From positions 97,987-161,986 of the forward strand of contig NZ_JAGGLS010000005.1 of assembly GCF_017874535.1 (NCBI RefSeq): DNA of 64,000 nucleotides, given 5' to 3'. Below, in pieces: positions 4,374 to 64,000 of the stretch. Within the stretch, counting starts at the first letter, position 1. Each line of letters begins with the position of its first letter. Both the position numbers and the translations under genes were made by a program. This DNA comes from Anaerococcus nagyae. GTDB taxonomy: Bacteria > Bacillota > Clostridia > Tissierellales > Peptoniphilaceae. The notes below the pieces were generated by a model, which was not told where the DNA came from, did no database searches, and was given only the letters and a program-made list of their open reading frames with translations.

Positions 4374-4733
4374 GAGATTTATCCACTACGCTTCGGTCGA
4401 AATGGATGGGTAGCTTTGTTCTCTTTGTTTTAAAAAATAAGTACAAATGTCTATATCGATTAAATGAAGGATATAGAGAAATATCATAGGTATTTCCAGA
4501 TTTCTAAACTTCGATTCGCTCCAGTCGAAATAGGTGGATGATTTTATGAACTTTATTTATAGAATAATGACAAATAACTATATTGGCTAAATAGAGTACA
4601 CAAAAAACATCATAAGCAATTATAGATTTCTCCACTCTACTTTGCTTCAGACGAATAGATAGAAATTTTATGTACTTTGATTATAAAATAAGTACAAATA
4701 ATATACCAACCCGACTAAAGTAGAGAGATCTCT
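4374..4733. repeat. Palindromic repeat array A (three decayed units)
   Basis: Three diverged copies of the dispersed palindrome. The left arms are GAGATTTATCC...GGTCGAAATGG (4374-4405), AGATTTCTAAACTTC...CAGTCGAAATAGG (4499-4533) and TAGATTTCTCCACTC...GACGAATAG (4623-4658). The third right arm is CGACTAAAGTAGAGAGATCT (4712-4731); the first two are badly worn. The spacer parts also resemble each other (AATAAGTACAAAT at 4437 and 4688), so the array arose by tandem duplication of a unit of about 125 bp. It sits between two converging genes. Confidence 0.8.
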
Positions 4734-11071: not shown

Positions 11072-11584
11072 ATGAAAGATTTAGTAGAAATATATTCATC
11101 AGACAATGATTCATTTGCTGTAGGTTATGTGATCTATCAAAGTGATGATAGATTATTCACCCACCTTGTAGATGATCAAGGTAAATTTGATGGTTATTTA
11201 TTGTTTGATAAAAATACAATTGACGGTATTGAAAAGAATAGCGAATATCTTAAAAAAATTGAAACCTATATGGGTTTTTGGGGCAATATCTCTATAGGTG
11301 ATAGCGATAACGAGATATACTCTTCTAAACCTGACTTTATAGATCTAATAAAATATGCCAAAGATCATAAGAAAATCATAAGACTTGCGACAAGTTTTAA
11401 TTATTATGATTCTATAACTGGTTTTGTAAAGGACTATAATGACGATATTGTCAATATAGATGCAATAAATACATCAAATGCCAAAATATTTGATACATTC
11501 GAAATACCAATAGAAAAACTTATAAGCCTAGAAATAGAATCAATAGATAATTTCTTGCTAGGCTACGCTTATAAAAAATCATGA
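11072..11584 (+). CDS. Uncharacterised 170-aa cytoplasmic protein with two similar beta-rich halves
   Basis: I do not recognise this protein. It has no signal peptide or membrane segment. It seems to hold two related halves. The first is FAVGYVIYQSDDRLFTHLVD then FDGYLLFDKNTIDGIE. The second is SITGFVKDYNDDIVNIDAIN then FEIPIEKLISLEIE. Both are glycine-containing beta strands followed by a short acidic turn, somewhat like SH3/LSm barrels. It begins eight bases after the ATPase gene and overlaps the MurJ-like gene by four bases (ATGA), so it belongs to this operon and may be translationally coupled to the flippase. Confidence 0.7.
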   Translation: MKDLVEIYSSDNDSFAVGYVIYQSDDRLFTHLVDDQGKFDGYLLFDKNTIDGIEKNSEYLKKIETYMGFWGNISIGDSDNEIYSSKPDFIDLIKYAKDHKKIIRLATSFNYYDSITGFVKDYNDDIVNIDAINTSNAKIFDTFEIPIEKLISLEIESIDNFLLGYAYKKS

Positions 11585-24602: not shown

Positions 24603-24820
24603 AGAGATCTCTCCACTTCAGTCGAGATGGTATGTATTTCCCACAATTTTATTAAGCAGGCTCCAACCATTTCTAACAGAGCAAAAGGAGTGGAGAAAGC
24701 TTAGTAATAATCAATACAAGGATCCCTCCGCTTCGGTCGAGATGGTATGTATTTCCCACAATTTTATTAAGCAGGCTCCAACCATTTCTACCTGAGCAAA
24801 AAGGAGTGGAGAAATCTATT
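24603..24820. repeat. Palindromic repeat array B (two units with identical cores)
   Basis: Two short-arm copies of the dispersed palindrome. Unit 1 (24603-24700) opens AGAGATCTCTCCACTTCAG and closes GGAGTGGAGAAAGCTT; unit 2 (24719-24820) opens AGGATCCCTCCGCTTCGG and closes GGAGTGGAGAAATCT. The 55 bases 24621-24675 recur without change at 24736-24790, so the duplication is recent. The array lies between two converging genes. Confidence 0.9.
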
Positions 24821-35163: not shown

Positions 35164-35390
35164 AGAGATTTCTCCGTTACATTACGCTTCGCTTCATTAC
35201 AGTCGAAATAAAGGGTTGTGTTTACCATCTCGACTAAGTGAATGAAATGAGTGCATGGAGAGATCTCAATTTATTTTAAATTTCATATCTTTATTTACTA
35301 TAAAGAACCCAAGAGATTCCTCCACTTCATTACACTCTAATTAAAACGGGATAAAGTTCATCACATCGACTAAATGAGTGTAAACGAATA
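35164..35390. repeat. Palindromic repeat array C (one good and one decayed unit)
   Basis: Unit 1 (35164-35268) opens AGAGATTTCTCC, reads CTTCGCTTCATTACAGTCGA in its left arm, and closes with CATCTCGACTAAGTG...GGAGAGATCTC. Unit 2 (35311-35390) keeps the opening GAGATTCCTCCACTTC and a worn right arm (CATCGACTAAATGAGTG). This array lies between metG and a flavodoxin gene on the same strand, unlike most others, which lie between converging genes. Confidence 0.8.
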
Positions 35391-51147: not shown

Positions 51148-51180
51148 AACTTCCTTCTACTTGCTATAGCTATTAAAATA

Positions 51181-51444
51181 GAGAGCGCTCCATTCACTCC
51201 GTTCGGACAAGATGGTAATCCATGGTTAATACCCCAACCCATTTCGACTGGAGCTAAGCGATAGTGGAGTGAAATGGAGAAATCTCTTGTATTCGTAATA
51301 GTAAGTAAATTTAAAACTCATAGCTAATTGAGGTCTCTCCACTCTCTTCGTTCGGTCGAGATAGATAATTAAACTCCATTGATCTTTTCGACCAGAGTGG
51401 AGAAATCTAACCTCTAACCATTTCGACCGAAGTGGAGAAATCTC
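51181..51444. repeat. Palindromic repeat array E (two units and one right arm)
   Basis: Unit 1 (51181-51285) opens GAGAGCGCTCCATTCACTCC and closes GGAGTGAAATGGAGAAATCT; its centre (ATCCATGGTTAATACCCCAA) matches array F. The linker after it (AATAGTAAGTAAATTTAAAA) is also the linker of array F. Unit 2 (51330-51408) and a right arm (51418-51444, CCATTTCGACCGAAGTGG) follow. E and F are therefore copies of the same multi-unit structure. Confidence 0.9.
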
Positions 51445-56611: not shown

Positions 56612-57208
56612 TCCCATTTCAACTGGAACGGAGAAACCTCTTTATTCCTAATAGTAAGTAATAATATGAAACTTAAAGCAACTGAGATCTCTCCGCTCAC
56701 TTCGTTCGGTCGAGATGGTAGTTCATGGTTAATACCTCAATCCATTTCGACTGTAGCGAAACGCAGTGGAGCGAAATGGAGAAATCTCTTGTATTCCTAA
56801 TAGTAAGTAAATTTTAAAACTTATAGCCTATTGAGATCTCTCCGCTTACTTCGTTCGGTCGAGATGGTAATTCATGGTTAATACCCCAATCCATTTCGAC
56901 TGTAGCGAAACGTAGTGGAGCAAAATGGAGAAATCTCTTTACTCCTAATAGTAAGTAAATTTTGAAACTTATAGCCTATTGAGATCTCTCCGCTCACTTC
57001 GTTCGGTCGTGATGGTAATTCATGGTTAATACCTCAATCCATTTCGACTGTAGCGAAACGTAGTGGAGCGAAATGGAGAAATCTCTTTATTTATATAAAT
57101 CAGAAATATATAAATATAGGATTGGAATCTCTCCGCTTACTTCGTTCGGTCGTGATGGTAGTTCATGGTTAATACCTCAATCCATTTCGACCGAAGCGGA
57201 GAAATCTC
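56612..57208. repeat. Palindromic repeat array F, left part (units 1-4)
   Basis: A lone right arm (56612-56641) is followed by units at 56684-56788, 56833-56937, 56981-57085 and 57124-57208. The first three are exactly 105 bp and nearly identical. Left arms run GAGATCTCTCCGCT...GTTCGGTCGAGATGG, centres GTTCATGGTTAATACC, right arms CCATTTCGACTGTAGCG...GGAGAAATCTC. Linkers of 43-44 bp (CCTAATAGTAAGTAAATTTT and so on) separate units 1-3. Unit 4 lacks 20 bp of its right arm and is preceded by a different linker; it is the one nearest the GIY-YIG gene. Confidence 0.95.
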
Positions 57209-57245
57209 AATCCAACGCAGTTAATTATATAAAGGAGCAAATAAC

Positions 57246-57542
57246 ATGTCTAACGATTACTACGTATATATAGTATCAAACAAAACAGATTCAACTGTAT
57301 ACATAGGTATGACCCATGATCTAGAAAAAAGATTATACGAGCACAAAAACCACCTAGCAAAAGGCAGTTTCACCGATAAATATAACTGTTATAAGCTAGT
57401 ATATTATGAATGGATAGATGACTACGATTCTGCCCTAGCTAGAGAAAAGCAAATAAAGAAATGGAATAGAAATAAGAAAAATAAGCTAATTAATTCAATA
57501 AATCCAGAATGGAAAGACTTGTCCCTAGAATGGTATAAATAG
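57246..57542 (+). CDS. GIY-YIG single-domain endonuclease inside the repeat array
   Basis: A 98-residue protein consisting only of a GIY-YIG/URI nuclease domain: YYVYIVSNKTDSTVYIGMT (the paired YVYI and YIG strands), the catalytic Arg in DLEKRLYEHKNH, LVYYEWIDDYDSALAREKQI with the likely metal-binding Glu, and the C-terminal KKWNRNKKNKLINSINPEWK. Members of this group (COG2827) are predicted endonucleases. It has its own AAAGGAG site. It starts 37 bases after repeat unit 4 and ends seven bases before unit 5, so gene and palindromes are closely bound together. Confidence 0.95.
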   Translation: MSNDYYVYIVSNKTDSTVYIGMTHDLEKRLYEHKNHLAKGSFTDKYNCYKLVYYEWIDDYDSALAREKQIKKWNRNKKNKLINSINPEWKDLSLEWYK

Positions 57543-57549
57543 ATATTAA

Positions 57550-57802
57550 TAGATCTCCCCACTCTCTTCGTTCGGTCGTGATGGTAGTTCATGGTTAATA
57601 CCTCAATCCATTTCGACTGTAGCGAAACGCAGTGGAGCGAAATGGAGAAATCTCTTTATTCCTAATAGTAAGTAAATTTTAAAACTTATAGCCTATTGAG
57701 ATCTCTCCGCTTACTTCGTTCGGTCGAGATGGTAATTCATGGTTAATACCCCAATCCATTTCGACTGTAGCGAAACGTAGTGGAGCGAAATGGAGAAATC
57801 TA
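57550..57802. repeat. Palindromic repeat array F, right part (units 5-6)
   Basis: Two 105-bp units (57550-57654 and 57698-57802) have the same arms, centre and 43-bp linker as units 1-3 on the other side of the nuclease gene. Unit 5 has ATCTCCCCACTCTCTTCG in its left arm. The last right arm ends GGAGAAATCTA. Confidence 0.95.
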
Positions 57803-63614: not shown

Positions 63615-64000
63615 AAGATTTCTCCATTTCATTCCACTTCGTTTCACTACAGTCGAAATGGGTGTGGTATTATTGCCATCTCGACTAAACTAGCGGTAGC
63701 GAGGGCATGGAGAGATCTCTAGTTTTTTGTTTTTATCTATTATTCTTACGTATATTAGGGATTTCTCCACTCCGCTTCGCTTCGGTCGAAATGGATTGGG
63801 TATTTTCACTTATTAACTACATAATGGAATTTCTTCATTTTTCTCAACTTCATTTTAATTCAGGCGAAGTTTGTAATAGAGTTCTATTTCCATCTCGACT
63901 AAATGAGCGGTAGCGAGGGCATGGAGAGATCTCTAGTTTTTTGTTTTTATCTATTATTCTTACGTATATTAGGGATTTCTCCACTCCGCTTCGCTTCGGT
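63615..64000. repeat. Palindromic repeat array G, continues past the window
   Basis: Unit 1 (63615-63720) opens AGATTTCTCCATTTCATTCC and closes CATCTCGACTAAACTAG...GGAGAGATCTC. A composite unit follows (63758-63933) with two left-arm-like parts and one right arm. A third left arm (63972-64000) is cut by the window edge. The 95 bases 63692-63786 recur without change at 63906-64000, a tandem period of 214 bp. Confidence 0.9.

What the first reader, a model, noticed from the sequence alone, without database searches (positions are those of the whole stretch)
56612..57802. GIY-YIG endonuclease gene embedded in a tandem array of 105-bp palindromes
Seen directly: six full palindromic units, five of exactly 105 bp, plus one lone arm, with a 98-aa GIY-YIG nuclease gene between units 4 and 5, only 37 and 7 bases from them. 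The palindromes recur elsewhere in the window without the gene. Known: REP palindromes in other bacteria are tied to the RAYT transposase, and GIY-YIG domains occur in homing and retro-element nucleases. Inference: the nuclease may cut or nick at the palindrome and drive its spread or amplification, making this the autonomous copy of the family. I know of no described system of this type with a GIY-YIG enzyme.
Basis: partly seen in the sequence, partly recalled or inferred. Interest (0 to 1): 0.78.

Follow-up and report, generated by a model that had tools for sequence, protein, structure and literature searches.

The report
Nuclease paired with orphan palindromic repeats
In bacteria of more than twenty phyla, genes for one small family of predicted DNA-cutting enzymes sit beside or between copies of a short hairpin repeat whose type follows the enzyme's family tree, and the enzyme is likely what cuts and spreads these repeats, a widespread class reported in 2013 to lack a dedicated enzyme.

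Summary
Observation confirmed: five 105-bp units, one 85-bp unit and a degenerate arm flank a 98-aa GIY-YIG gene. The link is general. Of 80 homologous loci (23 named phyla), 72 have a hairpin of one class within 500 bp; 50 have one within 150 bp on both sides, against 2 of 791 other ORFs of the same DNA. DUF559 nuclease genes (0 of 23) and UPF0213 GIY-YIG genes (1 of 12, one side) serve as controls. The hairpins, (G)TCAT-stem-loop-stem'-ATC, often with a tandem G.A mismatch, include Neisseria dRS3, one of the CGTC-tagged REPs said in 2013 to 'apparently lack a dedicated transposase'. Repeat class follows the enzyme tree (7 changes against 24 shuffled); paralogues of one genome carry different repeats; cassettes occupy sites that hold no REP in relatives. 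Catalytic residues are nearly invariant. Best reading: a REP system run by a GIY-YIG nuclease that likely recognises and cuts its hairpin. Cutting and copying are inferred. Against: 15 of 30 Gammaproteobacteria rich in one repeat type, and one repeat-rich relative, lack a recognisable gene.

The parts
57246..57542 (+). 98-aa single-domain GIY-YIG nuclease gene, REP-associated subtype; Y8, Y19, R29, E67, N86 conserved
57182..57208 (+). nearest upstream REP hairpin (ATTTC-GA-C...G-GA-GAAAT-CTC), tail towards the gene
57550..57584 (-). nearest downstream REP hairpin (left arm of unit 5, imperfect), tail towards the gene
56612..56640 (+). lone degenerate REP arm
56684..56788 (.). unit 1: two inverted REPs, 105 bp
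56833..56937 (.). unit 2, 105 bp
56981..57085 (.). unit 3, 105 bp
57124..57208 (.). unit 4, 85 bp (short right arm)
57550..57654 (.). unit 5, 105 bp
57698..57802 (.). unit 6, 105 bp
51179..51444 (+). two gene-free units
63615..63934 (-). gene-free REP cluster near the contig end
37596..37907 (+). gene-free units
35165..35269 (-). gene-free unit
24603..24814 (+). gene-free units, weaker matches
4375..4732 (-). gene-free, diverged REP matches

Best explanation
This is a gene-plus-repeat cassette of a widespread REP system: a single-domain GIY-YIG enzyme gene flanked by inverted copies of a hairpin repeat, whose product is predicted to recognise that hairpin, nick DNA at the edge of the stem, and so likely seed copying of the repeat, and sometimes of the whole cassette, into new sites through repair. 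Shown: adjacency in loci of 23 named phyla; a common hairpin architecture; repeat class following enzyme phylogeny; different repeat types beside paralogues of one genome; filled sites against sites without REPs; gene-free REPs dispersed in the genome; an intact catalytic set under purifying selection. Inferred: binding to the extruded or single-stranded hairpin; a cut where the stem meets the GTC-like tag or the C-rich tail; repair-based copying. GIY-YIG enzymes hydrolyse DNA without a covalent link to it (recalled), so the route must differ from the transesterification of RAYT/IS200 enzymes.
For: Strict motif learned in the genus and applied unchanged to 80 new loci: 112 hits within 500 bp (1.44/kb) and 74 beyond (0.07/kb), 35 of 80 loci; 13 other dinucleotides give at most 6 within 500 bp. 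Wider GTCAT...ATC rule: 70 of 80 loci against 1-7 for nine permuted tag/tail pairs; both rules 72 of 80. REP within 150 bp on both sides: 50/80 genes against 2/791 other ORFs. Later samples: 19/22 untruncated Gammaproteobacteria loci, both sides 14/22, DUF559 0/23; Rickettsiales order 18/22, both 14/22; plasmid records 10 of the 12 fetched out of 32. Repeat class on protein tree 7 changes against 24.1 shuffled, 0 of 500, 20.6 shuffled within phylum, 0 of 200. Distant repeats match the near-gene stem set 0.50 against 0.13 shuffled, 0 of 2000. Paralogues with distinct repeats. Filled and REP-free sites; different cassettes at one site. dN/dS 0.04-0.14 in 5 pairs. Fold closest to UPF0213, then Slx1, a branched-DNA nuclease.
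Against: No cleavage or movement observed. 15 of 30 Gammaproteobacteria with 5 or more CGTC-1 repeats lack a recognisable gene; in the genus G001 has 126 REPs and no gene, G007 95 and only a fragment, G003 40 and only a weak broken match, G030 17 and no gene. No base-resolved insertion or target duplication could be read. Two of three single arms of the window do not fold better than shuffles. Repeat types beside genes could partly follow the enzyme by linkage; the far-repeat test answers this only in part.
Confidence: 0.66

Rival explanations
1. Homing into REPs: the GIY-YIG gene is a homing-type parasite that cuts REPs made by something else and is copied into REP arrays by double-strand-break repair; it does not create the repeats.
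For: Gene sits inside REP arrays; different cassettes occupy one site in sister species; repeats persist without the gene.
Against: The filled junction holds no REP in the 26 other species measured, as if REPs and gene arrived together; repeat class tracks the enzyme tree, and far repeats in the same locus match it; gene and repeat co-occur across genomes (odds ratio 6.4).
Confidence: 0.18
2. Regulatory or domesticated pair: the enzyme is a host DNA-processing factor that uses REPs as binding sites, or the hairpins act as terminators and control the gene; spread is incidental.
For: Purifying selection; usually few copies; hairpins lie close to gene ends.
Against: Patchy presence, 17 of 31 genomes of the genus; 1-13 copies per genome in 30 genomes; stops in 4 of 81 genes; changing genomic positions; most hairpins are far from the gene in the genome.
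Confidence: 0.1
3. Another enzyme (RAYT/IS200 transposase, or a nuclease such as DUF559) moves these repeats and the GIY-YIG gene is a passenger.
For: Repeat-rich genomes without the gene; a DUF559 protein is annotated under the sufB-sufC match of one plasmid (H56).
Against: DUF559 loci 0 of 23 untruncated are flanked and DUF559 presence is not significantly tied to the repeat pattern (p 0.39 for >=1 copy, 0.11 for >=5). PMC3733652 reports that no IS200/RAYT gene is flanked by CGTC units (passages read). RAYT genes were not searched by me.
Confidence: 0.06

Closest known systems
CGTC-tagged REPs (PMC3733652), including Neisseria dRS3 and Rickettsia RPE-4/RPE-6
   Same: Stem opening with complementary AT, C-rich tail (CCA-like), inverted dimers, dispersed copies; dRS3 surrounds the gene in N. 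gonorrhoeae
   Different: The window's own genus has CC in place of the GTC tag and CTC in place of CCA, with a tandem G.A mismatch; PMC3733652 names no partner enzyme
REPtron: RAYT (TnpA-REP) plus GTAG REPs / REPINs
   Same: Enzyme gene flanked by inverted REPs, gene-free REPs elsewhere, enzyme-REP co-evolution, imperfect and perfect palindrome groups (PMC8266576, abstract and outline seen)
   Different: Unrelated enzyme (GIY-YIG hydrolase, not HuH/Y1), unrelated tag
GIY-YIG homing endonucleases (I-TevI, I-BmoI; features recalled)
   Same: Catalytic fold; predicted site-directed cutting
   Different: No DNA-binding extension (98 aa), intergenic, palindromic repeats at the ends, no intron
UPF0213 / YazA-YhbQ GIY-YIG proteins (1zg2, 1ywl)
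   Same: Closest solved structures by sequence and fold
   Different: Homologues align only to about residue 87 and lack the C-terminal NPxWxDL stretch; 1 of 12 loci has a hairpin within 500 bp, on one side
Slx1
   Same: Next structural neighbour, Foldseek probability 1.00 but E 0.006; a branched-DNA nuclease
   Different: Eukaryotic, partnered with Slx4, not repeat-linked (recalled)

Membership tests
RAYT/REPtron | HuH/Y1 transposase domain | tested here: not met
   Pfam gives GIY-YIG and a weak T5orf172 only
RAYT/REPtron | GTAG tag on the REP | tested here: not met
   Tag is (G)TC before AT in most loci and CC in the window
RAYT/REPtron | enzyme gene flanked by REPs, gene-free REPs elsewhere | tested here: met
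CGTC REPs | complementary AT opening the stem | tested here: met
   Window and most loci; some genus members have GC or AC in place
CGTC REPs | CGTC/TGTC/CCTC tag and CCA-like tail | tested here: inconclusive
   Met in N. gonorrhoeae, A. lipoferum, Shinella and Rhizobium CIAT894; not met in the window (CC tag, CTC tail)
CGTC REPs | stem of 8-9 bp, loop of 4-5 | tested here: not met
   Tandem-GA forms here have 5 bp, G.A G.A, then further pairs, and longer loops
REPIN/BIME | two inverted REPs forming a dimer | tested here: met
GIY-YIG nuclease superfamily | GIY-YIG fold with Y, Y, R, E, N | tested here: met
GIY-YIG homing endonuclease | separate DNA-binding domain; insertion in intron or conserved gene | tested here: not met
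   98 aa single domain, intergenic
any nuclease-driven mobile repeat | the enzyme cleaves the repeat | not testable with these tools
   needs purified protein

The most novel reading that the evidence does not exclude
The GIY-YIG family is the missing mobility enzyme of CGTC-type REPs: a separate class of bacterial mobile element in which a one-domain hydrolytic nuclease and its hairpin co-diversify, and which has seeded repeats known under separate names (dRS3, Rickettsia palindromic elements, inverted REP dimers) across much of the bacterial domain.
Probability: 0.55. Interest if true: 0.95.

Novelty: new variant of a known kind. Interest (0 to 1): 0.9.

Why it matters
A 2013 survey left open which enzyme, if any, moves CGTC REPs. 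This gives a concrete candidate, a recognition code to test (stem sequence, tandem G.A or perfect stem, GTC-like tag, C-rich tail) and many matched enzyme-repeat pairs. It would join repeats catalogued separately in Neisseria, Rickettsia, rhizobia, Bacteroidota and candidate phyla, would give a role to a very common small 'GIY-YIG nuclease family protein', and would mean that REP systems arose at least twice with unrelated enzymes.

Tried and rejected
DUF559 (PF04480) as an alternative partner: 0 of 23 untruncated loci flanked (7 truncated ones dropped), presence not significantly tied to the repeat pattern. UPF0213/YazA as partner: strict motif 2 hits in 11 loci, both over 1.2 kb away; wider rule 1 of 12 loci within 500 bp, on one side. 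Distant GIY-YIG or DUF559 genes in repeat-rich, gene-less genomes: 9 regions, none flanked on both sides, one with a REP 233 bp away. Base-resolved insertion ends: A. lipoferum spacers too diverged; S. meliloti pSymB and rhizobial plasmids showed other repeats or complex differences. A looser scan of the 8 loci without a hit did not beat its controls (6 of 8 against 4, 6 and 7 of 8); by eye several of the 8 hold mutated REPs, which is not counted. Phages: no match at E 1e-8. IMG/VR: 10 loci, 4 with a hairpin within 25 bp by the TCAT rule. Rfam: no family in the array. Pair counts on alignment A2 are not used as evidence, because the scan that chose those rows demanded pairing. In one search one control tail (CC) gave 32 hits within 500 bp; I read it as the CCA-like tail of the same class, not as noise. 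RAYT genes were not searched.

Full report
What is there. The array at 56612-57802 is as described, with small corrections. Each unit is a pair of inverted REP hairpins with tails outward. The elementary hairpin reads CC-ATTTC-GA-C...G-GA-GAAAT-CTC, or the ATCTC/GAGAT version, so the stem carries a tandem G.A mismatch. The gene's nearest hairpins, 57182-57208 (+) and 57550-57584 (-), both turn their tails to the gene. The genome (1.75 Mb, 16 contigs) has one gene of this subtype, one UPF0213-like gene and a third GIY-YIG match in a 618-codon frame that I take to be UvrC, and many gene-free REPs (39 blastn matches; 90 model matches).

How the motif was found and tested. In the window's genome and 60 relatives the homologues fall into two groups: one close to the query (49-68% identity outside the own genome) and a weaker UPF0213-like one. 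Reading flanks of the first group (17 loci) showed hairpins with different stems but one plan: 5-nt stem, GA, pair, loop, pair, GA, complementary stem, CT. Scanned by rule, 18 such loci (the window's included) gave 96 hits, 15 of 18 loci having some; 11 UPF0213-like loci gave 2; ten other dinucleotides in place of GA gave 0-2 in the first group. One control tail, CC, gave 32 hits within 500 bp, which fits a CCA-like tail.

Widening the class. Of the 45 loci that failed the strict rule I read the flanks of 41. They showed related hairpins, many without the G.A pair: GTCAT + stem ... stem' + ATC. This rule alone marks 70 of 80 loci within 500 bp (302 hits near, 195 far), nine permuted tag/tail pairs 1-7 of 80; with the strict rule 72 of 80. 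It was learned partly on the same loci, so its weight rests on other sets. Other ORFs of at least 80 aa in the same DNA: 2 of 791 flanked on both sides within 150 bp against 50 of 80 genes; any side 89 of 791 against 70 of 80. Gammaproteobacteria: 19 of 22 untruncated loci any side within 250 bp, 14 of 22 both (best 30 loci, 8 truncated dropped; two of those genomes also gave loci to the 80), and DUF559 genes of the same 274 genomes 0 of 23 (7 truncated dropped) (one search had counted truncated loci too, 26 of 30 and 0 of 30). The order of a Rickettsiales genome: 18 of 22 untruncated loci, 14 both sides (8 dropped). Plasmid collection: 10 of 12 fetched records out of 32 with a match; Novosphingobium and Sphingobium are the misses. 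UPF0213 loci: 1 of 12 within 500 bp, one side. In the 80 loci the nearest upstream hairpin is + and the nearest downstream - in 34, the reverse in 7, the same strand in 14, and one or both absent within 400 bp in 25.

Link to known repeats. PMC3733652 (abstract, CGTC section, Discussion part 1 and passages read) sorts REPs into GTAG- and CGTC-tagged superfamilies, describes CGTC stems as almost always opening with complementary AT and ending mostly in a CCA-like tail, equates Neisseria CGTC-1 with dRS3 and R. [quoted passage not shown] The word GIY does not occur in its main text. The gene sits among such repeats in N. gonorrhoeae (dRS3), Azospirillum lipoferum, Shinella and Rhizobium, and among related ones in S. 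meliloti. That the Rickettsiales loci include RPE copies was not tested. Paper searches: GIY-YIG with REP and palindrom (107 papers, 25 listed, by title mostly fungal mitogenomes, genome editing and nuclease structure), with 'repetitive extragenic palindromic' (0), with RAYT (10 listed; in PMC9465073 the two are separate genes of one table, passages read), with interspersed repeats (0), with dRS3/REPIN terms (39, 30 listed), with later REP terms (90, 25 listed), with inverted-repeat transposable (6) and COG2827 (2): none seen joins the enzyme to the repeats. PMC12306157 and PMC6006769 have no occurrence of GIY (passages). The library holds open-access PMC papers and no preprints, so absence is not proof.

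Specificity. On a tree of 81 proteins (95 columns, 44 of 78 inner branches open) the repeat class (tandem-GA or not, 72 labelled rows) needs 7 changes against 24.1 shuffled (0 of 500) and 20.6 shuffled within phylum (0 of 200); the stem label needs 24 against 40.3 within phylum (67 rows, 0 of 200). The phylum label needs 35 changes on all its rows, or 22 against 35.8 shuffled on 56 rows, so the phylum changes far more often than the repeat class. Linkage alone could carry the repeat with the gene, so repeats more than 1 kb away were compared: their stem is in the near-gene set in 0.50 of cases against 0.13 shuffled (41 loci, 146 repeats, 0 of 2000), their class agrees in 0.67 against 0.50 (p 0.004). 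Of six genomes with more than one gene examined, G011, G002 and G012 show clearly different repeat types beside their copies; in the other three (G025, G021, G015) the types overlap or are alike. The corresponding RAYT result, enzyme groups co-evolved with bulged or perfect REPs, is in PMC8266576 (abstract and outline only seen).

Presence and absence. In the genus a covariance model of local REP types finds a median of 36 matches in 17 genomes with the gene and 6.5 in 14 without (one-sided p 0.005; 150 candidates per genome are scored, so high counts are lower bounds). Exceptions: G001 (126, no gene), G007 (95, a gene fragment), G003 (40, a weak match with stops and no REP beside it), G030 (17, no gene); G021 has the gene and 0 by this model though REPs of another type lie beside it. 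In 274 Gammaproteobacteria 30 of 58 genomes with an exact CGTC-1 pattern carry the gene against 31 of 216 without it (odds ratio 6.4, p 1.4e-8); of 30 with five or more copies 15 lack it. Completeness of these genomes is not told. I read this as loss of the enzyme after spread, but it could mean another mover.

Mobility. A. lipoferum has REP-REP-gene-REP-REP between sufB and sufC (617 bp apart), where A. ramasamyi, A. oryzae, B510 and A. thermophilum have spacers of 91, 87, 129 and 55 bp; the matched DNA is 95-97% identical in the first three. Shinella PSBB067 has its own REP-gene-REP at the same junction. In the window's genus a junction of two conserved genes is 1376, 1546 and 1848 bp long with 3, 13 and 10 REPs plus the gene in three species; in the 26 other genomes measured it holds no REP: 18 gaps of 66-321 bp and 8 of 789-1270 bp whose content I did not examine. 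Those three species hold two kinds of cassette, the genes of the two kinds aligning over only 92 bp at 75%, and another pair of species holds different cassettes at a second shared site; flanks are 92-95% identical. The window's gltS neighbour is not within 1.5 kb of such a gene in any of 21 other genomes. Matches run from 1 to 13 per genome in 30 genomes (E <= 1e-12, some weak ones may be UPF0213-like) and to 11 in the Rickettsiales sample, where 49 of 105 genomes have one.

Enzyme. Y8, R29, E67 and N86 are present in 81 of 81 proteins and Y19 in 80; 4 of 81 have a stop. dN/dS is 0.04-0.14 in five pairs, saturated in two. The model (mean pLDDT 92) resembles UPF0213 (E 1.5e-4), then Slx1 (probability 1.00, E 0.006 and above). 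Slx1 acts on branched DNA, which would fit an extruded hairpin; this is analogy.

Judgement. Enzyme-repeat partnership: close to certain as a genomic fact. The enzyme acting on the hairpin: likely. The enzyme driving the spread: best-supported account, with homing into existing REPs as the main rival.

Noticed in passing
L281:2118 versus L282 (S. meliloti pSymB, 1021 versus Rm41): A 115-bp element beginning TAGAGCGGGATGAGG is present in 1021 and absent in Rm41, with TAGAG at both edges: a clean presence/absence of a different rhizobial repeat.
   Followed up: partly
L286, about 11288-11414 (Rhizobium sp. B21/90): About 80 bp of extra hairpin-like sequence in an intergenic gap compared with R. 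tumorigenes; not a REP of this class by my scan.
   Followed up: no
L154 (NZ_CP119140.1): A 2.17-Mb N. gonorrhoeae chromosome is filed as a plasmid in the plasmid collection; other chromosome-sized records appear there too.
   Followed up: no
G001 of the genus, L276 and L277: REP-rich genome (126 matches) with no recognisable REP-type gene; near-identical REP copies suggest recent amplification.
   Followed up: partly
window 63615-64000: The contig ends inside a REP cluster, so the assembly probably broke on these repeats.
   Followed up: no
L145, L146, L150, L153 (IMG/VR contigs): Contigs filed as viral carry the gene with a hairpin within 25 bp; whether they are true prophages was not checked.
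   Followed up: no
L078 to L143: Candidate-phylum genomes (Omnitrophota, Zixiibacteriota, Parcubacteria and others) carry the same gene-REP pairs.
   Followed up: partly
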